DNA from: a virus
Direction: 5' to 3' (one strand)
Length of the DNA: 20,308 nucleotides
Virus record (IMG/VR): IMGVR_UViG_3300020055_001415
Location: 1 to 20,308 of that record
This document shows positions 2,265-16,081 of the stretch, piece by piece. A model generated the notes under the pieces. It was given only the letters and a program-made list of their open reading frames with translations. It made no database searches and was not told the origin of the DNA. The position numbers were made by a program, and so were the translations under genes. Position 1 is the first letter of the stretch; the number at the start of each line of letters is the position of its first letter.

Positions 2265-4733
2265 ATGCAGAAATTTGACAGAATAAGTGAAGATCTTTTT
2301 AAAAAATTGCGTGGAAAATTTCCAGCGATTACAATAGGCGATGCTGAAGGCAATGTAACAAATGAACCTTCAGAAGCTAGATTCTTTGATTTTTCTTATA
2401 ACAATGACGGAACGGATATTGGAAAAGTTAGTATAAGTATTTCGGAACAAGAAGGACTCACTGTAATTTATTCTAATGATATTGTTGAATTTCAAGATGA
2501 TATAACAAAGAAACAATGGTTTAATTTTTTAAAAGAACTAAGAGTCTTTAGTAAAAAAAGATTACTTGATTTCAGTATCAGAGACATAAACAAATCAAAC
2601 TTAACAAAAAAAGATTATAAGTTTTTAGCAACAAATCGGTCTGGGGACGGAAAAATGACAGAATCAAAACTATATGGCACTAGTCGTGTAAGCTATCAAA
2701 AAGTAGGCGAAGCACGTATTATAATCAAACATACAGAAAGTATTAACCAGGAAAGTGCCACAGGTAGAACACAAAAGATTGGAAAAATTTATATTGAATC
2801 TCCCGAAGGTGAAAGATTTAAATATCCATACAAACATCTAAGTGGTGCAAGAGCAATGGCACGTCACGTAGCAGAAGGCGGAAACACATACGACGATTTT
2901 GGTAAGCATATTGTAGGCCTATCAGAAGAAATGGCAAAGCTACGTAAGTTTAAAAACTATATGAGCCGTTCAGCTGTAATGGCAGAAAGCCTAGCAGGAT
3001 ATACAGATATTGTCAAAGAACGTATTGCTACAGTTAAAAAAGAAATAGCGTCATTACAAAAGCCAGCATACTACAAAGAAGCATTTGAAACATTTAATCC
3101 CCCAGTACTAGAAGATGTTCCAAGTGATGTTGCTGAAAACTGGATAGACGAACTAACTATTAAGCAGTTTAATGAAGAACTACAAGATATCTTCCCATAC
3201 ATATACAACCTAGTAAAAGAAGGTACAAAGGCCAAAGAACTAGGTCCAGATGATGTACTAGGAGAGTCAGAAGAAGAATTAGACGAAGTTGCTCCGCTTA
3301 TAGCAGCAGGTGTAATGGCCGCAGCTAGAGCAGCAATTCCGCAACTATCGAGAATGGGTGCTTCAATATTAGCCAAAAGAGGTGCTGCAATAAAAGCTGC
3401 AAAAGCCCGCATTGCTGCAAGAGCCGCAGGACAAACAGCCGGACAAGCAGTTGGGCAAGCAGCCGGACAAGTTGCAAGAAGCGCAGGACAAGCAGCTGGA
3501 CAAGTTGCAAGAGGCGCAGGAAACTATATTGCAAAAAATCCAGGAACAACCGCAGCACTGGGCGGTGCTGCTTATGTTGGAAAGCAAGTAAGCGATACTA
3601 TAGATGATTTAGCAACTAGTGCAGAAGAACTTATGGATAAAGCTTCTCAAGGTATTAATGGTATACAAGACGAAATTTCAGCATTTTTAGGCGGCGGCGC
3701 TCTTAGACAAATTGGAGCATCAGCAGCTAAATATGGACTACCTGTACTTGCAGTTATTGCTATATTATATGGTGGCAAGAAAGTAATAAATTGGTTAATG
3801 GGCAAAGGCGACGAACCTAGAACAGAAGAAATTGAATTTGACGAAGGCGAACGTCACGGCAATAGTAAGATTTATGATAAGTGCCGCGACGGTTGGCGTA
3901 AAAAACCAGGTGCAACAAGAGGATCTAAAGGTTCTTGCATTCCAGAAGAAACTGCATTAGAACAAGGCTTTGAAGAAATGATGGGTCAGTTTAGCGAAGC
4001 TGAAAATGATCTAGAAGAAGCATATATCAAAACACGCAAAGACGCTGTAGAAGCATTAGGTCGTTTGCGTGGCATTGGTAAAAAGATTGAAACAGGCAAA
4101 GACACATATGATGGCAACTTAGCCAATGAATATGTAAGTGATGTATACGATGTATACAGTTGGATGGATAGCAAATTAGGTATTAGCGGTATGAATGATC
4201 CTAAGCTAAAGGAAGTTCTAGAACCTGTTATGCAGTTACGTGGCGAAGCTAAGAAATTAGAAACTAAGCCAGGCAGCGGTGAAAATGCACGTTTTGGTAA
4301 TCAAATTGTAAATGCATTATATCCATTGATGGTTTATATTAGAGATGTAATGGAAGATCCAAAAGACGAATCTAAAGGCAAAGATCTTGACAAGGACGGC
4401 GATATTGATTCAGATGATTATATGAAGGCAAAAGATATTGCTATTAAAAAGGCAATGGGAAAAGATGACGAAGAAGACGTCAAAGAACAAAAGACACCAT
4501 TAGGCGAGTTTATACTATCATACTATGACAGAGAAACAGGCCTGTTTCCAAAAGGCGAGACCGCAGTATTAACTATGGTTGAGAAAGACTACGGCGAAGA
4601 GTTCATAGAACCGGCAAAGGCTTTCATTGAACAGGTACAAGCACTCTTCGATGAGTATCAGATGCATACACAACCACAGCAGTTGGATACAGAAGAGTTT
4701 GACAGAATGAAGGAGCTTGCAGGTTTACGCTAA
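2265..4733 (+). CDS. Large unknown phage protein, probable virion or DNA-ejection component
   Basis: I do not recognise the family. The ATG at 2265 (protein MQKFDRISED) is preferred over the in-frame ATG at 2205 because the latter lies deep inside gp17; this gives 822 residues. The N-terminal 370 residues are mixed alpha/beta and highly charged. Residues about 345-420 are Ala/Gly-rich, with an AAGQ-type repeat including two 11-residue copies (QAAGQVARSAG). A hydrophobic segment at about 490-503 (GLPVLAVIAILYGG) is followed by Lys/Trp residues and could insert in a membrane. Two Cys flank a Lys-rich stretch near 545-568. An excellent EF-hand loop, DLDKDGDIDSDD, occupies 707-718. The C-terminus ends FDRMKELAGLR, a tail type I recall from marine T4-like virion proteins. 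Long, late-promoted, next to the terminase and with a membrane-active centre: a structural or ejected protein is the best inference. Confidence 0.88.
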   Translation: MQKFDRISEDLFKKLRGKFPAITIGDAEGNVTNEPSEARFFDFSYNNDGTDIGKVSISISEQEGLTVIYSNDIVEFQDDITKKQWFNFLKELRVFSKKRLLDFSIRDINKSNLTKKDYKFLATNRSGDGKMTESKLYGTSRVSYQKVGEARIIIKHTESINQESATGRTQKIGKIYIESPEGERFKYPYKHLSGARAMARHVAEGGNTYDDFGKHIVGLSEEMAKLRKFKNYMSRSAVMAESLAGYTDIVKERIATVKKEIASLQKPAYYKEAFETFNPPVLEDVPSDVAENWIDELTIKQFNEELQDIFPYIYNLVKEGTKAKELGPDDVLGESEEELDEVAPLIAAGVMAAARAAIPQLSRMGASILAKRGAAIKAAKARIAARAAGQTAGQAVGQAAGQVARSAGQAAGQVARGAGNYIAKNPGTTAALGGAAYVGKQVSDTIDDLATSAEELMDKASQGINGIQDEISAFLGGGALRQIGASAAKYGLPVLAVIAILYGGKKVINWLMGKGDEPRTEEIEFDEGERHGNSKIYDKCRDGWRKKPGATRGSKGSCIPEETALEQGFEEMMGQFSEAENDLEEAYIKTRKDAVEALGRLRGIGKKIETGKDTYDGNLANEYVSDVYDVYSWMDSKLGISGMNDPKLKEVLEPVMQLRGEAKKLETKPGSGENARFGNQIVNALYPLMVYIRDVMEDPKDESKGKDLDKDGDIDSDDYMKAKDIAIKKAMGKDDEEDVKEQKTPLGEFILSYYDRETGLFPKGETAVLTMVEKDYGEEFIEPAKAFIEQVQALFDEYQMHTQPQQLDTEEFDRMKELAGLR
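3456..3521 (+). repeat. In-frame 33-bp tandem repeat (two copies)
   Basis: Copies at 3456-3488 and 3489-3521 differ at only two bases (C/T in the third codon, A/G in the ninth). Each encodes QAAGQVAR(S/G)AG. Looser AGQ units precede them from about 3424. The register is exactly eleven codons, so this is a coding repeat of the large protein, plausibly a site of copy-number variation, and not a mobile element. Confidence 0.85.
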
Positions 4734-9308: not shown

Positions 9309-10148
9309 ATGGCGCATTTTGACTACATTATAGACAAGATACACAGAGCTGACTTTGTTGAAAGTCCGTTTAAATATCTATATATAGAAAATTTCTTTAA
9401 TCAAGAGGACTTTGAATTAATTACTTCAGATAAACAAATAAATTTACAAAAATATAATTCTACCGAGGAATTAATTGAAGACCTTCAATCGAAAAAATAC
9501 AAACCTGTTCCTTTTCCAGGATGCACAACATCAGTTAATGAATATTTAGATTGGTATAACAATTCTACAACTACAGGATTTCATAATGATGACTTGTTAG
9601 AAGGATTTGGAATGAGTATGCGTCTAAGATCCTATGCTAACGAAAAGATACAAGAATTAATGAACTTTTTGAATTCAGATACCTTTCATAATGTAATTAA
9701 GGAAAAGTTTGGGAAAACAAAAAAAACAATAGTCGAAACTGCTATACAAAAATATCTTTCGGGATATGAAATTAGTCCACATCCTGACATTAGAACAAAA
9801 TGTTTAACATACATGATAAACATCAACACTGATACAGCATTGTCTGAAAAACTAGACTTACATACTCATTTTATGTCATTTAAAGATAGTAAATCAAACA
9901 TATATGACTATTGGAAAGATAATACAGCAGTAGATCGATGCTGGGTGCCGTGGGATTGGTGTGAGACCAATTTTCAACATGTAAAGAACAATTCTATTAC
10001 AATGTTTGCTCCTGATAATAATACATTACATGCAGTAAAGTTAAAATACGATCATAAAGTAATACAACGAACACAAATATACGGAAATCTATGGTATGAT
10101 ACAAAAAAAGGAAAATCTTCTTCGTGGAAGGATTTAGAACAAGTATGA
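9309..10148 (+). CDS. 2OG-Fe(II) dioxygenase-like protein
   Basis: It is predicted to hydroxylate a substrate using Fe(II), O2 and 2-oxoglutarate. The 279 residues contain the double-stranded beta-helix signature: HPD (His158, Asp160) in the context SGYEISPHPDIRTK, a distal His at NTLHAVK (His241), and Arg254 in VIQRTQIYGNLW placed to bind 2-oxoglutarate. The N-terminus, with SPFKYLYIENFF (19-30), resembles the entry strand of prolyl-hydroxylase-type enzymes. The start has AAGGA 6 nt upstream and a late promoter behind that. It overlaps the GSCFA gene by ATGA. Such oxygenases are frequent in marine T4-like phages with substrates mostly unknown; between glycan genes, a modified sugar or a virion protein is plausible. 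Confidence 0.85.
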   Translation: MAHFDYIIDKIHRADFVESPFKYLYIENFFNQEDFELITSDKQINLQKYNSTEELIEDLQSKKYKPVPFPGCTTSVNEYLDWYNNSTTTGFHNDDLLEGFGMSMRLRSYANEKIQELMNFLNSDTFHNVIKEKFGKTKKTIVETAIQKYLSGYEISPHPDIRTKCLTYMININTDTALSEKLDLHTHFMSFKDSKSNIYDYWKDNTAVDRCWVPWDWCETNFQHVKNNSITMFAPDNNTLHAVKLKYDHKVIQRTQIYGNLWYDTKKGKSSSWKDLEQV

Positions 10149-11146
10149 GTAAAATTGCTTTAGAAGGAAAATATCAAGGACACGACGGCGGCGCAAAAAA
10201 AAGGATAGGAAGATCTTTTTATAGAGGAGAGTATGTAAATTTTAATCCTTACTTAAAAGACTTCGAACAAGAAAATTTTCTTGATAACTATCTGTTTAAA
10301 GGTTGGAAACCTGATAATAAAATTATTACCAAAAACACTAAGGTTACAGCATTTGGTAGTTGTTTTGCAAGCAACATTGCTAACCATTTAAGTAATGCAG
10401 GGTATTCGTTATCAAAAGACGAACAACCTGATATCTATATTAGTTCTATGGGTGAAGGTCTTGTAAACACATTTTCACTTCTACAACAATTTGAATGGGC
10501 ACTAGAAGATAAGACGCCAACACAAGCATTATGGCACGGTTACAAAGCAGAAGATTACGGTTATTCAGATGAGATCAAAGAAAAAACAAAAGAAGCATTT
10601 TTAAATACAGAATTTTTTATTATCACATTAGGACTATCTGAGATATGGTATGACGAAGTAACTGGCGAAGTATTTTGGAGAGCTGTACCACAGGACAAAG
10701 TTGATCCAAGCAGGCATAAATTTAGAGTGTGTACATTATTAGAAACAAAAGAAAATCTACAAAAAATTTATAACATAATACGCAAGCACATACCAAATGC
10801 AAAGCTGCTGTTTACTCTAAGTCCTGTACCTTTAGCAGCTACTTTCCGACCAGTAAGTTGTATGAGTGCTAACAGTGTATCCAAATCAATATTAAGAGCT
10901 GCACTAGATGAATTTTATAGAGACAATTGGTCTGATGTAAACACCAAGTTGTTTTATTTTCCAAGTTACGAAATTGTTACAGAATTGTTCTTCCAAAAAT
11001 TTAAAGAAGACAATCGACATCCTAAAGACGAAATTATTGCAATGATAATGAACTTATTCGAGTACTACTATTGTGATACTAAAATGAGTAATATTGAACA
11101 AACATATAAAAAATTAAGAGAAGAAAACAAAAATCAAATAACTTGA
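10145..11146 (+). CDS. GSCFA-family SGNH-like hydrolase/esterase
   Basis: The start at 10145 (MSKIALEGKY) gives an ATGA overlap with the previous gene; an upstream ATG at 10124 lies inside that gene and is less likely. In 333 residues all GSCFA landmarks are seen: AFGSCFASNIA (69-79, nucleophile Ser72), TLGLSEIWYD (161-170), FTLSPVPLAATF (223-234) and DNRHP (Asp289, His292, the Asp-x-x-His pair of SGNH hydrolases). The Ser-Asp-His set is therefore complete and the enzyme is probably active on an ester or acyl group. The family is linked to cell-surface glycans in bacteria. Paired with a 2OG oxygenase under a late promoter, it could trim or modify an acylated glycan; that is inferred. The next gene starts after 30 nt with its own late motif. 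Confidence 0.9.
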   Translation: MSKIALEGKYQGHDGGAKKRIGRSFYRGEYVNFNPYLKDFEQENFLDNYLFKGWKPDNKIITKNTKVTAFGSCFASNIANHLSNAGYSLSKDEQPDIYISSMGEGLVNTFSLLQQFEWALEDKTPTQALWHGYKAEDYGYSDEIKEKTKEAFLNTEFFIITLGLSEIWYDEVTGEVFWRAVPQDKVDPSRHKFRVCTLLETKENLQKIYNIIRKHIPNAKLLFTLSPVPLAATFRPVSCMSANSVSKSILRAALDEFYRDNWSDVNTKLFYFPSYEIVTELFFQKFKEDNRHPKDEIIAMIMNLFEYYYCDTKMSNIEQTYKKLREENKNQIT

Positions 11147-11176: not shown

Positions 11177-11932
11177 ATGAAAGTAGTATTGGTTACAGGC
11201 GGCTTTGATCCGTTACACAGTGGTCACATAGAATATTTTAAAGCAGCAAAAGAATTAGGCGATCACCTTGTTGTAGGTGTGAATAGTGATGCATGGCTTA
11301 CACGTAAAAAGGGTAAAGCATTTATGCCCTTTGAAGAACGTTGTGCAATAATTAAAGAACTAGATTGTGTAAATGAAGTTATAGGATTCAATGACGATGA
11401 CGATACTGCCTGTGCTGCAATATTTCAAGTGCTGTCCACTGTAGGCAGTCAAACTAAAGTCGTATTTGCTAACGGCGGCGATAGAACCAAAGACAACATT
11501 CCTGAAATGATATATGACGATGTTGAATTTGTATTTGGTGTTGGTGGCGAAGATAAAAAGAATTCAAGCAGTTGGATACTCAAAGAATGGAGTCAACCTA
11601 CTACTGAACGTGCCTGGGGCAAATACACTGTGCTACACAAAGGTGACGGTTGGCAGGTAAAACAATTAGCGTTTTATGCAGGTAAAGCATTAAGCGACCA
11701 ACGGCATTTTAAACGTTCTGAACATTGGCATGTGGTAGAAGGTGAAATAAAAATGATCCTTGAATATACAAACGGACTACGCCATACAAAAAGATTAACA
11801 GCAGGCGATAGTATAGATATTCCTATGCTAACATGGCATAAAGCAAGTAATATAGGCGATGTTACTGCAAAAGTAATTGAAGTATGGATGGGGAACCATT
11901 TAACAGAAGACGATATTGAAAGAAGAGATTAA
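11177..11932 (+). CDS. Fusion of RfaE/TagD-like nucleotidyltransferase and mannose-6-P isomerase type II-like cupin
   Basis: Residues 1-135 form a cytidylyltransferase-like domain: GGFDPLHSGH (8-17, with the nucleotide-binding His14-x-x-His17), GVNSDAWL (34-41), RKKGK (43-47), and SSSWI (130-134) in the place of the family's ISST.IR motif. This class joins CTP or ATP with a sugar- or polyol-phosphate to make an activated donor. Residues 145-245 form a cupin like the C-terminal domain of GDP-mannose pyrophosphorylase/phosphomannose isomerase: WGKYTVLHKGDGWQVKQL, RHFKRSEHWHVVEGE (metal ligands around His177, His183) and a second motif with His221. Both together suggest making and isomerising an activated sugar for the glycosyltransferases that follow. 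It heads the late-promoted operon and overlaps the next gene by TAATG. Confidence 0.88.
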   Translation: MKVVLVTGGFDPLHSGHIEYFKAAKELGDHLVVGVNSDAWLTRKKGKAFMPFEERCAIIKELDCVNEVIGFNDDDDTACAAIFQVLSTVGSQTKVVFANGGDRTKDNIPEMIYDDVEFVFGVGGEDKKNSSSWILKEWSQPTTERAWGKYTVLHKGDGWQVKQLAFYAGKALSDQRHFKRSEHWHVVEGEIKMILEYTNGLRHTKRLTAGDSIDIPMLTWHKASNIGDVTAKVIEVWMGNHLTEDDIERRD

Positions 11933-12606
11933 TGAAAGTATTTGTAGGATATGACACTAGAGAAGATATTGCTTACCAAGTTTGTAAACACAGTATTGAA
12001 ACTAAGAGTAAACTAGCCGATGTACGTCCCCTAAAACAACAGGAATTACGTGATGCAGGATGGTATACTAGACCAATAGATAAACTTGCAAGTACAGAGT
12101 TTACATTCACACGTTTTCTAATACCAGAGCTTACCAACTTTAAAGGTTGGGCATTGTTTATGGATTGCGATATGATCCTTACAACAGACATCAAAGAACT
12201 GTTTGATCAAGCAGATCCAAAGTATGCAGTGATGTGTGTGCAACATGATTATACACCTAAAGAAGGCACAAAGATGGATGGACAAAAGCAAACTATCTAT
12301 CCACGTAAAAACTGGTCAAGTGTAATGTTGTTTAACTGTGGTCATCCAAGCAATGCTGCATTAACACAAGACTTAGTTAATGATCCAGAAATAAACGGAG
12401 CATATCTACACAGATTTAGTTGGTTAAAAGATGAAGAAATTGGAGAATTGGATCACACTTGGAATTATCTTGTTGGTGTTTATGACGATATAGAAACACC
12501 AAAACTAATACATTATACAGAAGGAGGACCGTGGTTTGAAAACTATAGAAACTGTGAATTCAGTGATCTATGGAAACAAGAACTTGCGGACATGATGAAT
12601 GGGTAA
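11932..12606 (+). CDS. GT-A glycosyltransferase, GT8-like
   Basis: A 224-residue nucleotide-sugar glycosyltransferase with a Rossmann-like start (MKVFVGYDTRED) and the metal-binding DxD motif LFMDCDMI (residues 75-82, Asp78 and Asp80). Further features fit GT8 and related families: EFTFTRFLIPEL (56-67), NWSSVMLFNCGHP, LDHTWNYL and the C-terminal IHYTEGGPWF, whose His would be the third metal ligand. It lacks a signal peptide or membrane segment and should act in the cytoplasm. The start overlaps the previous stop (TAATG) and its end overlaps the next gene by 8 nt, so it is in one translational chain with the sugar-activating fusion protein. The donor and acceptor cannot be determined here. 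Confidence 0.88.
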   Translation: MKVFVGYDTREDIAYQVCKHSIETKSKLADVRPLKQQELRDAGWYTRPIDKLASTEFTFTRFLIPELTNFKGWALFMDCDMILTTDIKELFDQADPKYAVMCVQHDYTPKEGTKMDGQKQTIYPRKNWSSVMLFNCGHPSNAALTQDLVNDPEINGAYLHRFSWLKDEEIGELDHTWNYLVGVYDDIETPKLIHYTEGGPWFENYRNCEFSDLWKQELADMMNG

Positions 12607-13423
12607 AGTAGCAGCTATAGACAGTAAAGGCGGAAACAATTATCATAAGAAAGGGCACGAATACGATCCGTATTTGCGCAGTTTTATGATAGGAGTAGAT
12701 GGAAAGGAATCTACTTGGGAAGCTGAAGAGGATACTGATAGTATCCTTATTGTACGTGGCCTAGGCGGCGGTAGTCAAAAAGCTATAAAACGTTGTTGGA
12801 GTACAGGGAGGCCTTTCTATGCAATCGATACAGGATATTTTGGTAATGACAAACACAAAAGATGGCATCGTATAACATATAATGCGCTACAAAATATGGA
12901 GTCTATTATAGATAGACCAGATGATAGGTTAAAGTTACAGTTAGGGGATTGGGAAAATATATACAAACCTTTTACGCCAGGCGAAAAAATTCTAGTATGT
13001 CCTCCGAGTGACAAAGTAATGAATATGTTTAATCAAGGCACTGCCGAAGAATGGACTAAAAAATGTGTTGCACAAATAAGAAAAATAACCAATAGACCCG
13101 TTGTAATCAGAATGAAGCCTATTAGAAGTGAACGTATCAGCACAAAGACAATACAAGACGCACTAGCAGATGACATACACTGTTTAGTAACATACAATAG
13201 TATTGCTGCTACCGAAGCATTGATGGAAGGCAAGCCTGCTATTACGCTAGGTCCAAATGCAGCTCAACTTGTATGCGAAACAAAACTGGAAAATATAGAA
13301 AATCCACGTATACCTAGTGAAAAGCAAATGTATGCCTTCATGAAGCACCTGTCTTATGCACAATTTACGCAAGCCGAGATGGAGGACGGTACTGCTTGGA
13401 AGATATTAACGGAGCGTAGATAA
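12599..13423 (+). CDS. Glycan-island protein, GT-B-like, paralog A of three
   Basis: A 274-residue protein not matched to a named family by eye. Residues 129-215 carry a pattern shared with the genes at 13423 and 15203: EKILVCPP, IRKITNRPVVIRMKP (160-174) and VTYNSIAATEALMEGKPAI (197-215). The last part, a donor-site-like Ser/Asn-S-x-x-A...G-x-P motif, resembles the sugar-nucleotide-binding C-domain of GT-B enzymes of capsule synthesis. A common ending, with EMEDGTAW followed by a Leu, is also shared. The N-terminal half differs from the paralogs and could choose the acceptor. It overlaps its neighbours by 8 nt (5') and TAATG (3'). A glycosyltransferase or glycan-export role is inferred from pattern and context. 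Confidence 0.82.
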   Translation: MGKVAAIDSKGGNNYHKKGHEYDPYLRSFMIGVDGKESTWEAEEDTDSILIVRGLGGGSQKAIKRCWSTGRPFYAIDTGYFGNDKHKRWHRITYNALQNMESIIDRPDDRLKLQLGDWENIYKPFTPGEKILVCPPSDKVMNMFNQGTAEEWTKKCVAQIRKITNRPVVIRMKPIRSERISTKTIQDALADDIHCLVTYNSIAATEALMEGKPAITLGPNAAQLVCETKLENIENPRIPSEKQMYAFMKHLSYAQFTQAEMEDGTAWKILTERR

Positions 13424-14355
13424 TGGGTACAAAGGTTGCAAGCTATCTAATGGGTATACCTCCAGGAAATAAAAATCCTGAAAAACCTGCAATTATAGTT
13501 AACTTCATAGAAGGTGTATGGAAGAGCGGCGACGAAGGAACAATTGTCACAGATTACAATCCTGTTGATGCAGATGTTGCTGTAGTACAAGGATTTGTGC
13601 ACCCTGGCAGTAAAAAGATGCCGCATTTAGATTTGCGTAAAAGAGTTTTTGATAAACAACAAATCGAAGGCAAAAGAAGCATCATTGTCGATAGTAATTT
13701 ATTTTTATCTTATGATCCAGATAATACAAAAAAATATTTAAGGTACAGCTATGACGGCGTATTTCCTAATACAGGCGAGTATTGTAATGATTTGCCTGAT
13801 CCTTCGAGATGGGAACAAATAAAAAGAGACATAGGAATAGAACTACAAGTACCAAGATATCATGGCAAGTATATTTTAATTTGCTGTCAGCGTGACGGTG
13901 GTTGGAGTATGGATGGCCAGCCAGTTATGCCATGGCTTGTAAGAACAATTAATATAATTAGAAAGTTTTCCGATCGTATGATATTAGTTAGATTTCATCC
14001 TGGTGATAAAAACCGAATTCAGCATATAAGAGCTCTGCAACGATATAGATTACCTGGCGTAGCACCTAGTAATTCGGATGGTTTATTAAAAGATCTAAAG
14101 AATGCTTATGCAGTTATTAATTACAACAGTAGTCCGGCTGTTGTAGCAGCAATAGAAGGAATTCCTACATTTGTTTTAGATCCTGATCGTAGTCAAGCAG
14201 CAGACGTATCACATCATAGTCTAAGCGAATTAGAAAATCCAAGAGAATTTGATAGAGAATCGTGGATTAGAAAAATGGCTCAGATGCACTGGACATTAGA
14301 CGAACTTAAAGACGGAACAGCATGGAGGCACCTAAGACAATGGGCCAAGAAATAA
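13423..14355 (+). CDS. Glycan-island protein, GT-B-like, paralog B of three
   Basis: A 310-residue homolog of the proteins encoded at 12599 and 15203. The shared core is KYILICCQRDGGWSMDGQ (149-166), IIRKFSDRMILVRFHPG (178-194), AVINYNSSPAVVAAIEGIPT (230-249) and the tail WTLDELKDGTAWRHL. The HPG and NSSPAVVAAIEG.P segments are what one expects around a sugar-nucleotide site in a GT-B fold. The N-terminal 145 residues are distinct, with a central VDSNLFLSYDPD. It starts in a TAATG overlap and its 3' end overlaps the next gene by 16 nt. Together with the two paralogs it looks like stepwise duplication and divergence to build a glycan with several different linkages. Confidence 0.82.
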   Translation: MGTKVASYLMGIPPGNKNPEKPAIIVNFIEGVWKSGDEGTIVTDYNPVDADVAVVQGFVHPGSKKMPHLDLRKRVFDKQQIEGKRSIIVDSNLFLSYDPDNTKKYLRYSYDGVFPNTGEYCNDLPDPSRWEQIKRDIGIELQVPRYHGKYILICCQRDGGWSMDGQPVMPWLVRTINIIRKFSDRMILVRFHPGDKNRIQHIRALQRYRLPGVAPSNSDGLLKDLKNAYAVINYNSSPAVVAAIEGIPTFVLDPDRSQAADVSHHSLSELENPREFDRESWIRKMAQMHWTLDELKDGTAWRHLRQWAKK

Positions 14356-15206
14356 TAGTAGTAACAACTTTCCATCCAGAAGGAATGGAAGTATATGGAC
14401 AACGTTTTATAGATAGCTTTGCACAAAACGTTGCTAAACGTATCAAATTAGTCGTTTACGCAGAGGACTGTACGCCAGTTAACCCTGACCCTAACCAAAT
14501 TACTATACTTGATGCAAAGCAAGAATTACCTAAACTAAATGCATTTAAAGAACGTTGGAAAGATGATCCAAAGGCAAATGGTATCCCGCCAGATAATATA
14601 AAAGCTAAACGTCCAAGAGATTGGCACAAAGAATTTAAATGGCATGCGATACGTTTTGCAAATAAAGTATATGCAGTGTTTGATGCTTGTGCAAAAAATT
14701 ATGGCACAGGTAGATGGATCGTTTGGATGGATGCAGACACATATGTACATAGTCCGTGGAGTCTTAAACAGTTTGAAGAACTACTGCCTTATAACAATTG
14801 GCTAACATATGTAGGTCGCGGCAAAGGATCTCAAACATGGCCAGAATGCGGATTTTATGGTATTAACATGAATCATCCAGTAGGTTGTAGTTTTGTAGAA
14901 GCGTTTGAACGTATGTATGAAGATGCAGACAACGGTATCTTTACACTAGAAGAATGGCACGACAGTTATGTGTTTGGCGAATTATTAAACAAAAATTTTG
15001 CAGACTTCAAAGACAAGGCACTAGATTATAGTGCTAACATATACAATAAAACTGCAAAAACTGGCGGCGGCGGACATCCCTTGATAAACAGTGAATTAGG
15101 TAAATGGATCGACCATATGAAAGGCGCCAGAAAATTTGACGGCAAATCAAAACGTAAAGATCTAATGGGCAATAGAACTGAACCTTACTGGCAAACAGTA
15201 AAATGA
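14340..15206 (+). CDS. GT-A-like glycosyltransferase with DxD motif
   Basis: The start at 14340 (MGQEIIVVTTFHPEG) is preferred because the first beta strand begins right after it; an in-frame ATG at 14322 adds six residues. The 288-residue protein has a clear WIVWMDADTYVHSPW stretch (126-140) with the metal-binding Asp131-x-Asp133 of GT-A enzymes. Later motifs include ECGFYGINMNHP and EWHDSYVFGELL, where the Trp-His-Asp segment could hold the catalytic base. The C-terminal GGGGHPLINSELGKWIDHMK and Lys-rich end are seen in phage and island glycosyltransferases. It is interleaved between paralogs B and C and overlaps the next gene by ATGA. The exact GT family is not assigned. Confidence 0.85.
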   Translation: MGQEIIVVTTFHPEGMEVYGQRFIDSFAQNVAKRIKLVVYAEDCTPVNPDPNQITILDAKQELPKLNAFKERWKDDPKANGIPPDNIKAKRPRDWHKEFKWHAIRFANKVYAVFDACAKNYGTGRWIVWMDADTYVHSPWSLKQFEELLPYNNWLTYVGRGKGSQTWPECGFYGINMNHPVGCSFVEAFERMYEDADNGIFTLEEWHDSYVFGELLNKNFADFKDKALDYSANIYNKTAKTGGGGHPLINSELGKWIDHMKGARKFDGKSKRKDLMGNRTEPYWQTVK

Positions 15207-16081
15207 TTTTTTGTTTATATACAGATTACGGTGCATTGAATAGTAAGCCTGTATTTGAAGCATTTGCACACAGCCTTATTGATGCAGGACATACTGTAAT
15301 TTATAACGAACCGTATAGAGTAATGAATCATTACAATAATTACGATGTGGCTGTAATATGGAGTGTTTTATGGAATGGACGAATGTCCTCCAATCAGCAA
15401 GTATGGGAAGTAAATAGAAACAATAACAGACCTGTAATTGTACTGGAAGTAGGTGGCATACAGAGAGGTACTACATGGAAGGTAGGATTGAATGGAATCA
15501 ATAGAGATGCTTATTGGGGGATTGATAATAATAGCGATAGCCGTGTCCGTTTACTTGGACTTGAAGTAAAACCTTGGCGTACGGACGGCGAGTATATTCT
15601 TATATGTGGTCAACACGATAAAAGTTTGCAATGGCAAAACATGCCACGTATGAGCAATTGGTTTTTAAACACATACGACGAAATACGCAAACACACAGAC
15701 CGTCCTATAATATTCAGACCGCATCCACGCTGTAGACTTGAACATATAGAACGTGGGTTGCGTTATGTAGAAAGACAGGAACCTCGACATGTTACTAATA
15801 CTTACGACGACTTTGATATGGGCTTTAATAATGTTTGGGCTACTATCAGTTACTCAAGTAACCCGGGCATACACAGTATCATTAACGGAGTGCCTGCTTT
15901 TGTTAGTACTCACAGTCTTGCTTACCCTGCAGGCAATGATATTGATTTTTTACATACTATAGAACAGCCTCTAATGCCAGATAGAACACAATGGCTCAAC
16001 GACTATGCTTGGACAGAATATACTATAGAAGAAATTAAAAACGGTGTTCCACTTAAACGATTGACAAATATGATTTTTTAA
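15203..16081 (+). CDS. Glycan-island protein, GT-B-like, paralog C of three
   Basis: A 292-residue homolog of the proteins at 12599 and 13423. The N-terminus FCLYTDYGALNSKPVFEAFA looks like the first Rossmann domain of a GT-B enzyme, with AHSLIDAGHTVIYNEPYRV after it. The shared core is EYILICGQHD (130-139), IRKHTDRPIIFRPHPRCR (161-178), ATISYSSNPGIHSIINGVPA (213-232) and the tail WTEYTIEEIKNGVPLKRL. The RPHPR and SYSSNPG...NG.P motifs match those of the paralogs and are typical of capsule-type glycosyl- or glycerophosphotransferase-like domains. It overlaps the DxD transferase gene by ATGA and is the last gene of the island. An early-type promoter for the next gene begins inside its 3' end. 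Confidence 0.84.
   Translation: MIFCLYTDYGALNSKPVFEAFAHSLIDAGHTVIYNEPYRVMNHYNNYDVAVIWSVLWNGRMSSNQQVWEVNRNNNRPVIVLEVGGIQRGTTWKVGLNGINRDAYWGIDNNSDSRVRLLGLEVKPWRTDGEYILICGQHDKSLQWQNMPRMSNWFLNTYDEIRKHTDRPIIFRPHPRCRLEHIERGLRYVERQEPRHVTNTYDDFDMGFNNVWATISYSSNPGIHSIINGVPAFVSTHSLAYPAGNDIDFLHTIEQPLMPDRTQWLNDYAWTEYTIEEIKNGVPLKRLTNMIF

What the first reader, a model, noticed from the sequence alone, without database searches (positions are those of the whole stretch)
11177..11932. Nucleotidyltransferase fused to a type II phosphomannose-isomerase-like cupin
An RfaE/TagD-like HxGH domain followed by a cupin with RHFKRSEHWHVVEGE is a different pairing from bacterial GDP-mannose enzymes, where the cupin follows a large mannose-1-phosphate guanylyltransferase. 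The small cytidylyltransferase would instead make a CDP- or ADP-activated sugar or polyol, so a new activated donor is possible.
Basis: partly seen in the sequence, partly recalled or inferred. Interest (0 to 1): 0.5.

Follow-up and report, generated by a model that had tools for sequence, protein, structure and literature searches.

The report
Phage sugar-activating enzyme with swapped parts
A marine phage gene joins a small nucleotide-transferring domain to a sugar-isomerase domain, a pairing also carried by many SAR86 ocean bacteria, where it may stand in for the usual enzyme that supplies activated mannose.

Summary
The ORF at 11177-11932 is real: 251 aa, an HxGH nucleotidyltransferase (NT; PF01467) joined to a type II phosphomannose-isomerase (PMI) cupin (PF01050), predicted metal ligands kept. 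It lies in a glycan island behind uvsX of a jumbo T4-like marine phage. The architecture is not rare: the 80 IMG/VR loci kept (of 277) encode it over nearly its whole length, as do 80 of 151 sampled genomes of the SAR86 order. No record among 72,556 plasmids or 50,697 phages covers 80% of it, and of 398 Pseudomonadota genomes only the SAR86 centre reaches E 1e-30.

In the SAR86 sample it behaves like a replacement for ManC (guanylyltransferase + PMI). ManC occurs in 0 of 80 fusion genomes against 16 of 71 others; class I PMI in 0 of 151. GDP-mannose dehydratase (gmd) occurs in 21 fusion genomes, in which a ManC model found no guanylyltransferase domain (one 25-bit hit aside); gmd lies within 50 kb of the fusion in 18 of 21 (1.9 expected). 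Best reading: an activated-mannose enzyme with ManC's logic but an unrelated NT fold. The nucleotide is unproven; NT-only relatives argue against tight coupling. My searches found no published description.

The parts
11177..11932 (+). NT-cupin fusion gene, 251 aa
11177..11590 (+). HxGH (CTP_transf_like) nucleotidyltransferase domain, residues 1-138
   Evidence: Pfam; model mean pLDDT 93 for the whole protein; fold matches 3glv Z 15.3 (2.0 A over 116), 2b7l Z 15.2, 1coz Z 15.1, tied
11216..11227 (+). HxGH motif (residues 14-17, HSGH)
   Evidence: H14, G16, H17 invariant in 60 of 60 rows
11471..11485 (+). NGGDR motif (residues 99-103), in the position of the KGGD-type motif of HldE-like enzymes
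   Evidence: invariant in 60 of 60; aligned to VKGGD of 5x9q
11555..11575 (+). KKNSSSW motif (residues 127-133), probably the nucleotide-binding ISTT-type signature
   Evidence: K127 and N129-W133 invariant in 60 of 60; role recalled from the family, not tested
11600..11929 (+). type II phosphomannose-isomerase cupin, residues 142-251
   Evidence: PF01050; VIA best row 7zvm Thermococcus phosphomannose isomerase Z 17.4, 1.3 A over 101, tied with the CapF cupin Z 17.1
11699..11722 (+). predicted metal ligands Q175, H177, E182 (QxHxxRxE)
   Evidence: invariant in 60 of 60, same residues in ManC; ligand role by analogy with type I PMI, recalled
11837..11839 (+). predicted metal ligand H221
   Evidence: invariant; role recalled
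11932..12606 (+). GT8-like glycosyltransferase directly downstream
   Evidence: PF01501 29.7 bits vs cut-off 24.3; homologue starts within 400 bases after the fusion in 53 of 80 viral loci
12599..13423 (+). paralogue of 13423-14355; fold assigned only through that protein's model
   Evidence: 26% identity, E 2e-15
13423..14355 (+). KpsC/WbbB-like (Kdo-transferase fold) GT-B protein
   Evidence: model pLDDT 94.7; VIA best 8fuw KpsC Z 14.0, 3.9 A over 246, tied with other KpsC rows
14322..15206 (+). weak GT2-like protein
   Evidence: Pfam hits below cut-off
15203..16081 (+). paralogue of 13423-14355
   Evidence: 32% identity over 174 residues
7859..8602 (+). GT25 glycosyltransferase
   Evidence: PF01755 55.2 bits
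8602..9297 (+). polysaccharide pyruvyl transferase
   Evidence: PF04230 64.9 bits
9309..10148 (+). 279-aa protein of the island without a family hit
10124..11146 (+). GSCFA-family protein
   Evidence: PF08885 144.8 bits
6150..7244 (+). UvsX/RecA-like recombinase, upstream border of the island
   Evidence: 67.0% to the RecA-like protein of phage Phosso; upstream and on the same strand in 43 of 43 viral loci that hold it

Best explanation
The protein is a two-step, ManC-like enzyme for supplying an activated mannose-type sugar. Its cupin isomerises fructose-6-phosphate to mannose-6-phosphate (inferred from similarity to PMI cupins). A mutase from the cell makes mannose-1-phosphate (assumed, not tested). 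The HxGH domain then transfers a nucleotide to the sugar-1-phosphate, in place of ManC's unrelated guanylyltransferase domain (inferred). In SAR86 the product would feed Gmd and GDP-fucose-synthase-like enzymes; in the phage it would feed the glycosyltransferases of the island, first perhaps the GT8-like protein encoded next to it, to alter the host surface or a phage glycan (inferred). Shown: both domains, their conserved sites, the distribution, the mutual exclusion with ManC in one sample of 151 genomes and the loose gmd linkage. Not shown: either activity, the nucleotide, the phage's host.
For: Cupin: PF01050 81.4 bits; the C-terminal part of ManC is the best NCBIfam hit; fold nearest to Thermococcus phosphomannose isomerase, tied with CapF; sites shared with ManC. 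SAR86 order, 151 genomes: fusion near full length in 80 by my count; ManC (E <= 1e-60) 0 of 80 vs 16 of 71, Fisher p 2e-6; class I PMI ManA (E <= 1e-15) 0 of 151. gmd (E <= 1e-80) in 29: 21 with the fusion, 5 with ManC, 3 with neither intact (one of them, G043, has a fusion cut by a contig end); fusion-or-ManC in 26 of 29 gmd genomes vs 70 of 122 others, p 0.001. In those 21 a ManC search down to E 1e-5 hit the fusion cupins, plus a 25-bit hit to positions 3-179 in G045 and a 34-bit hit to positions 322-452 in a 520-aa frame of G107. G037 and G011 lie on contigs of 1,325,892 and 1,194,046 bases, about their listed genome sizes, so a missed ManC is unlikely there. gmd starts within 50 kb of the fusion in 18 of 21 (1.9 expected from genome size), within 3 kb in 3. 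Gene orders: pgsA/NT-cupin/wzz-like/gmd/fcl-like; metK/NT-cupin/ahcY/gmd/fcl-like/degT-like; ugd-like/NT-cupin/galU-like/wzz-like/gmd/fcl-like/degT-like. gmd of L168 and L169 is over cut-off (554.6, 574.4 vs 415), the three fcl-like proteins are under theirs (246.5, 275.7, 480 vs 500); metK and ahcY are named by eye. Phage loci L017 and L018 carry a gmd homologue about 3 kb from their fusion (44%; 379.5 bits vs cut-off 415 for L018).
Against: The NT scores best against ADP-heptose and CDP-glycerol enzymes; I recall no HxGH enzyme that uses GTP or mannose-1-phosphate. NT-only forms exist: G055, G026 and G144 list a single match, the NT, with no cupin, at sites where relatives have the fusion (L129, L127, L128); G106 also has an NT-only frame, elsewhere (L130); none of the four has gmd. 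Cyanophages carry the NT alone. 59 of 80 fusion genomes show no gmd. The gmd linkage is looser than for ManC: from the coordinates, gmd starts within 3 kb of ManC in 4 of 5 genomes, but of the fusion in 3 of 21. A CDP-alcohol phosphatidyltransferase gene (PF01066, PgsA-like) is near the fusion in 11 of the 42 loci clustered, which could be read for a CDP-alcohol; it usually comes with uvrC, a common bacterial pair (recalled). The genomes are related and partly incomplete, so the Fisher values overstate independence. The mutase and other NTP_transferases (for example the GalU-like neighbour, under its cut-off) were not surveyed genome-wide. The window itself holds no gmd.
Confidence: 0.4

Rival explanations
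1. One reading: the NT makes a CDP- or ADP-activated sugar or polyol unrelated to mannose, and the cupin is only an associated isomerase that feeds another branch.
For: NT profile and fold nearest to HldE domain II and TagD; NT retained without the cupin in some SAR86 genomes and in cyanophages; NT half far more constrained than the cupin half (dN 0.014-0.104 vs 0.163-0.272); a PgsA-like CDP-alcohol phosphatidyltransferase near the fusion in 11 of 42 SAR86 loci, though usually beside uvrC.
Against: Gives no reason for ManC and fusion being mutually exclusive in the SAR86 sample or for gmd lying in the same region.
Confidence: 0.25
2. Activated heptose: the cupin is a phosphoheptose isomerase (in place of GmhA) and the NT an ADP- or GDP-heptose synthase.
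For: NT is HldE-like. In cyanophage P-TIM68 an HldE-like NT gene, a cupin gene (annotated cysteine dioxygenase) and a gene annotated phosphoheptose isomerase lie side by side, with transketolase-like and sugar-kinase genes just upstream.
Against: HldE kinase (E <= 1e-40) is found in 14 of 80 fusion genomes against 25 of 71 others; none in 80 viral flanks and the 300-kb contig G004 at E 1e-6. The NT of that cyanophage cluster matches A1 only weakly (63.4 bits over positions 1-103). GmhA-like hits in 54 of 151, none over the cut-off.
Confidence: 0.18
3. The cupin is a non-catalytic sugar-binding or regulatory domain on an ordinary NT.
For: Faster evolution of the cupin half; cupin absent from some NT-only proteins at the same sites.
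Against: The predicted ligands and the PMI tail motif are invariant in 60 of 60 rows; cupins of some SAR86 fusions lie nearer to ManC cupins than to the others, as expected if isomerase activity is what is selected.
Confidence: 0.08

Closest known systems
ManC / AlgA-type mannose-1-phosphate guanylyltransferase / mannose-6-phosphate isomerase (TIGR01479)
   Same: C-terminal PMI cupin with the same sites; two-domain NT + PMI layout; in SAR86 found in genomes with gmd, as ManC is
   Different: No GT-A-fold guanylyltransferase domain; a small HxGH NT instead; looser linkage to gmd than ManC has
HldE (RfaE) domain II, ADP-heptose synthase (TIGR02199)
   Same: HxGH fold; GGD-type motif in the same place
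   Different: Far under cut-off, no kinase domain, cupin instead; five SAR86 HldE rows form a separate clade (100/100)
TagD/GCT glycerol-3-phosphate cytidylyltransferase (1coz, 2b7l)
   Same: Fold of the NT half, Z about 15
   Different: 50.8 bits vs cut-off 165.4
Stand-alone type II MPI of cyanophage S-SCSM1 (PMC9602691, passages seen)
   Same: Phage-borne PMI of type II
   Different: Described there as monofunctional, the MPI domain only
Jumbo-phage/cyanophage sugar clusters (PMC7824862, section 22 read)
   Same: HIGH-superfamily NTs, cupin isomerases and glycosyltransferases together in phage clusters, read there as surface modification
   Different: That section speaks of them as separate components and does not mention a fusion

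Membership tests
Type II PMI cupin (PF01050) | profile score over curated cut-off | tested here: met
   81.4 bits vs 23.6
Type II PMI cupin (PF01050) | metal ligands and active-site motifs kept | tested here: met
   Q175, H177, E182, H221 and E-x-D-I-E-R invariant in 60 of 60, aligned with ManC
Type II PMI cupin (PF01050) | mannose-6-phosphate isomerase activity | not testable with these tools
   needs an assay
HxGH nucleotidyltransferases (PF01467) | profile over cut-off, HxGH motif | tested here: met
   59.9 bits vs 21; H14, G16, H17 invariant
ManC (TIGR01479) | GT-A guanylyltransferase domain at the N-terminus | tested here: not met
   only profile positions 358-460 match, 77.4 bits vs 372.95
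ManC (TIGR01479) | makes GDP-mannose | not testable with these tools
   only indirect: gmd without ManC in 21 fusion genomes
HldE domain II (TIGR02199) | equivalog score over cut-off | tested here: not met
   69.9 vs 181.5 bits
HldE | fused PfkB kinase domain | tested here: not met
   251 aa, no kinase-domain hit
TagD / glycerol-3-phosphate cytidylyltransferase (TIGR01518) | equivalog score over cut-off | tested here: not met
   50.8 vs 165.4 bits

The most novel reading that the evidence does not exclude
An HxGH-superfamily domain that guanylylates (or otherwise nucleotidylates) mannose-1-phosphate: a non-homologous replacement of ManC, spread through SAR86 and its exchange partners among marine jumbo phages, which would make SAR86 a likely host of these phages.
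Probability: 0.25. Interest if true: 0.75.

Novelty: new variant of a known kind. Interest (0 to 1): 0.5.

Why it matters
If the reading holds, a widespread group of surface-ocean bacteria makes its activated mannose with an enzyme of a fold not known (to my recall) for that job, and phages carry the same enzyme into infection. It would fill a missing step in SAR86 glycan pathways, give a two-domain enzyme that can be assayed at once, and offer a gene shared between SAR86 and an uncultured group of jumbo phages as a host clue.

Tried and rejected
Chance or frameshift: rejected. Cyanophage origin: cyanophages have a relative of the NT alone, between gp43 and uvsX; the best listed rows for the window's TerL and UvsX are jumbo phages (Pseudomonas phages such as PA5oct, 54.6%; Phosso 67.0% and Atu_ph07 65.4%; 12 rows listed of 2529 and 2522 records). 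Repeated independent fusion: suggested by the cupin trees (L123/L137/L138 and the QSSS group fall with ManC cupins), but holding all fusion cupins together is not rejected (p-AU 0.159), so not claimed. Plasmids: 411 of 72,556 records match, none over 80% of the query. Other cupins in the fold lists (OxdC, quercetinase, CapF and more): general cupin fold; CapF ties with the PMI rows. First NT tree dropped: its outgroup row was cut from the wrong part of L135 and 19 rows without the exact NSSSW string were lost; one search replaces it, and its bootstrap had not settled. Rows dropped: SAR_L120 (partial in my ORF calling); phage rows over 88% identical thinned, 44 of 58 kept, the window being represented by its identical copy L004, 12 of 44 phage rows used and SAR_L136 left out. 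Genomes with traces of the fusion not counted in the 80: G043 (cut by a contig end), G099, G067, G073, G135 (broken or split frames); I added nothing to their sequences. No tRNA in the window. Host of the phage: not settled.

Full report
Observation. The ORF 11177-11932 encodes 251 aa. Pfam finds CTP_transf_like at residues 6-119 (59.9 bits) and MannoseP_isomer at 143-249 (81.4 bits), both over their cut-offs. NCBIfam places the cupin with the C-terminal part of ManC (77.4 bits, positions 358-460) and the NT nearest to HldE domain II (69.9 bits), with TagD at 50.8 bits, all under their equivalog cut-offs. The predicted model has mean pLDDT 93 and pTM 0.67, so the domains are firm and their mutual placement is less so. 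The cupin's best row is Thermococcus phosphomannose isomerase 7zvm (Z 17.4, 1.3 A over 101 residues), tied with the CapF cupin (Z 17.1); the NT half matches 3glv (Z 15.3), 2b7l (15.2) and 1coz (15.1).

Conserved sites. In 60 distinct fusion proteins (window, 56 viral rows, L082, two SAR86) the residues H14, G16, H17, N99-R103, K127 and N129-W133 of the NT and Q175, H177, R180, E182, W184, H221 and D246-R249 of the cupin are invariant. Aligned with ManC cupins the same cupin sites are kept. Ligand roles are by analogy with phosphomannose isomerases and are recalled, not computed.

Distribution. In IMG/VR, 277 stretches encode a relative; the best 80 were kept, and these 80 carry both domains. 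Of 50,697 phage records 30 match, none over 80% of the query. Of 72,556 plasmid records 411 match, none over 80%. In genome contigs three loci were found by a search that reaches close relatives only: two SAR86 and L082, an 8.6-kb contig binned as Pirellulales whose ORFs look phage-like to me (read, not scanned). In 151 genomes drawn from the order of the SAR86 genome G001, 128 match at E 1e-3, and by my count from that table 80 carry both domains near full length in one open frame. In 274 genomes of its class, among the listed rows only G001 and G011 show the full fusion and G298 has an NT-only frame and, apart from it, a cupin in a frame of 126 aa; the other listed matches cover one domain. 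In 398 genomes of its phylum only G001 reaches E 1e-30. Other phyla were not searched with the profile.

Genome context in the phage. The window is a 20,308-base virus record. Its TerL is 54.8% identical to that of a 287-kb Pseudomonas phage and its UvsX 67.0% to that of Sinorhizobium phage Phosso; five contigs with the fusion are 200-342 kb long, so these are probably jumbo phages. uvsX lies upstream on the same strand in 43 of 43 loci that hold it. A GT8-like homologue is found in 56 of 80 loci and starts within 400 bases after the fusion in 53, whereas homologues of the window's four upstream island genes are found in 9, 6, 3 and 6 of 80. Loci cut short by contig ends lower all these counts. 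Three further genes of the island are paralogues; the model of one (pLDDT 94.7) is nearest to KpsC, WbbB and KrkA Kdo transferases (Z 12-14). So the fusion belongs to a glycan-building island. One published analysis reads such phage clusters as surface modification and names HIGH-superfamily NTs and cupin isomerases among their parts (PMC7824862, section 22).

Genome context in SAR86. Among 42 loci clustered, the fusion lies at several sites: metK-X-ahcY (named by eye; L083, L084, L114, L145), pntB-X-gyrA (L110, L112, L117), and beside uvrC, pgsA, UDP-glucose-dehydrogenase-like, Wzz-like and NTP_transferase genes (families of cluster representatives). At both of the first two sites some genomes have an NT-only form in place of the fusion (L129; L127, L128), so the cupin can be lost or gained.

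The ManC test. Of the 151 genomes, ManC (E <= 1e-60) is in 16, none of them among the 80 with the fusion. Class I PMI (E <= 1e-15) is in 0 of 151, while the same search rings in 7 of 14 control genomes. HldE kinase (E <= 1e-40) is in 14 of 80 fusion genomes and 25 of 71 others. gmd (E <= 1e-80) is in 29: 21 with the fusion, 5 with ManC, 3 with neither intact. In the 21, a laxer ManC search (E <= 1e-5) returned the fusion cupins, plus a 25-bit hit to the NT part in G045 and a 34-bit hit to positions 322-452 in a 520-aa frame of G107; the ManC-bearing G069 and G095 in the same call gave over 680 bits. For two of the 21, G037 and G011, the contig is about as long as the listed genome. The fusion and gmd start within 50 kb in 18 of 21, 1.9 being expected from genome size alone, and within 3 kb in three. 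For ManC the link is tighter: gmd starts within 3 kb of it in 4 of the 5 genomes that have both (coordinates). In three loci the gene order reads as a route from GDP-mannose to a GDP-6-deoxysugar; gmd is over its cut-off, the fcl-like proteins are under theirs. A published SAR86 single-cell genome reports GDP-mannose dehydratases in a hypervariable region for outer-membrane modification (PMC3569297, one passage).

Interpretation. A protein that joins a PMI-type cupin to a nucleotidyltransferase, was not found together with ManC in this sample, and occurs with gmd in genomes where the models used detect no other PMI and no ManC-type guanylyltransferase is most simply a ManC stand-in. The weak points are plain: kinship among the genomes, incomplete assemblies, no survey of mutases or of all NTP_transferases, 59 of 80 fusion genomes without gmd, NT-only relatives, a looser gmd link than ManC's, PgsA-like neighbours that could be read for a CDP-alcohol, and an NT whose nearest named kin use ATP or CTP (recalled). 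I therefore give 0.4 to the activated-mannose reading and 0.25 to its strongest form.

Evolution. In the NT tree most SAR86 rows form one clade (35 rows, 98/100); phage rows, cyanophage NT-only rows and a few SAR86 rows lie outside it; the bootstrap had not settled. In the cupin tree the phage rows are one clade (95/84) and some SAR86 fusions fall with ManC cupins. For L123 the cupin is 50% identical to a ManC cupin and 34% to the window's, while its NT is 59% identical to the window's. One origin is nevertheless not rejected (p-AU 0.159). Between window and relatives L007, L009, L010 and L011 synonymous divergence jumps at the domain junction (0.36-0.69 in the NT, 1.7 to saturated in the cupin), less so in the other four compared; this suggests that phages exchange the cupin half by recombination.

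Literature. Searches listed no paper that I could see to describe an NT-PMI fusion or a ManC replacement in SAR86; the library holds open-licence papers only, and most listed papers were seen only as listings. Seen as passages: PMC9602691, PMC3569297, PMC5332604 (which predicts a SAR86 host for one environmental virus) and PMC7824862 (section 22 of it in full).

Noticed in passing
window 12599-13423, 13423-14355, 15203-16081: Three paralogous proteins without a Pfam hit; the model of 13423-14355 has a KpsC/WbbB-like GT-B fold (Z 14.0 to KpsC), i.e. Kdo-transferase-like enzymes in a phage.
   Followed up: partly
L007, L009, L010, L011 against window 11177-11929: Synonymous divergence jumps at the NT/cupin junction, suggesting recombination that swaps the cupin half among phages.
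   Followed up: partly
L032, L033, L035, L072, L080 (about 2972-3431), L070 10797-11207: Further NT-only ORFs of 137-151 aa, about 30-34% identical to the window's NT over 77-78 residues, in the same phage loci.
   Followed up: no
SAR86 loci L083, L084, L114, L129, L145 and L110, L112, L117, L127, L128: Between metK and ahcY, and between pntB and gyrA, the fusion and an NT-only form replace each other.
   Followed up: partly
SAR86 loci L123, L137, L138 and L124, L125, L132-L136: NT-cupin proteins whose cupins group with ManC cupins; the second set has QSSS in place of NSSSW.
   Followed up: partly
P-TIM68 record positions 166044-173051 (L165): A cyanophage cluster with transketolase-like, sugar-kinase, HldE-like NT, cupin (annotated cysteine dioxygenase), 'phosphoheptose isomerase', epimerase and glycosyltransferase genes, resembling an unfused heptose-type route.
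   Followed up: no
L123, L137, L138, L146 (genomes G045, G089, G110, G115): A few SAR86-order genomes carry NT domains that fall outside the main SAR86 clade, among phage and cyanophage rows, a sign of exchange between phages and bacteria.
   Followed up: partly
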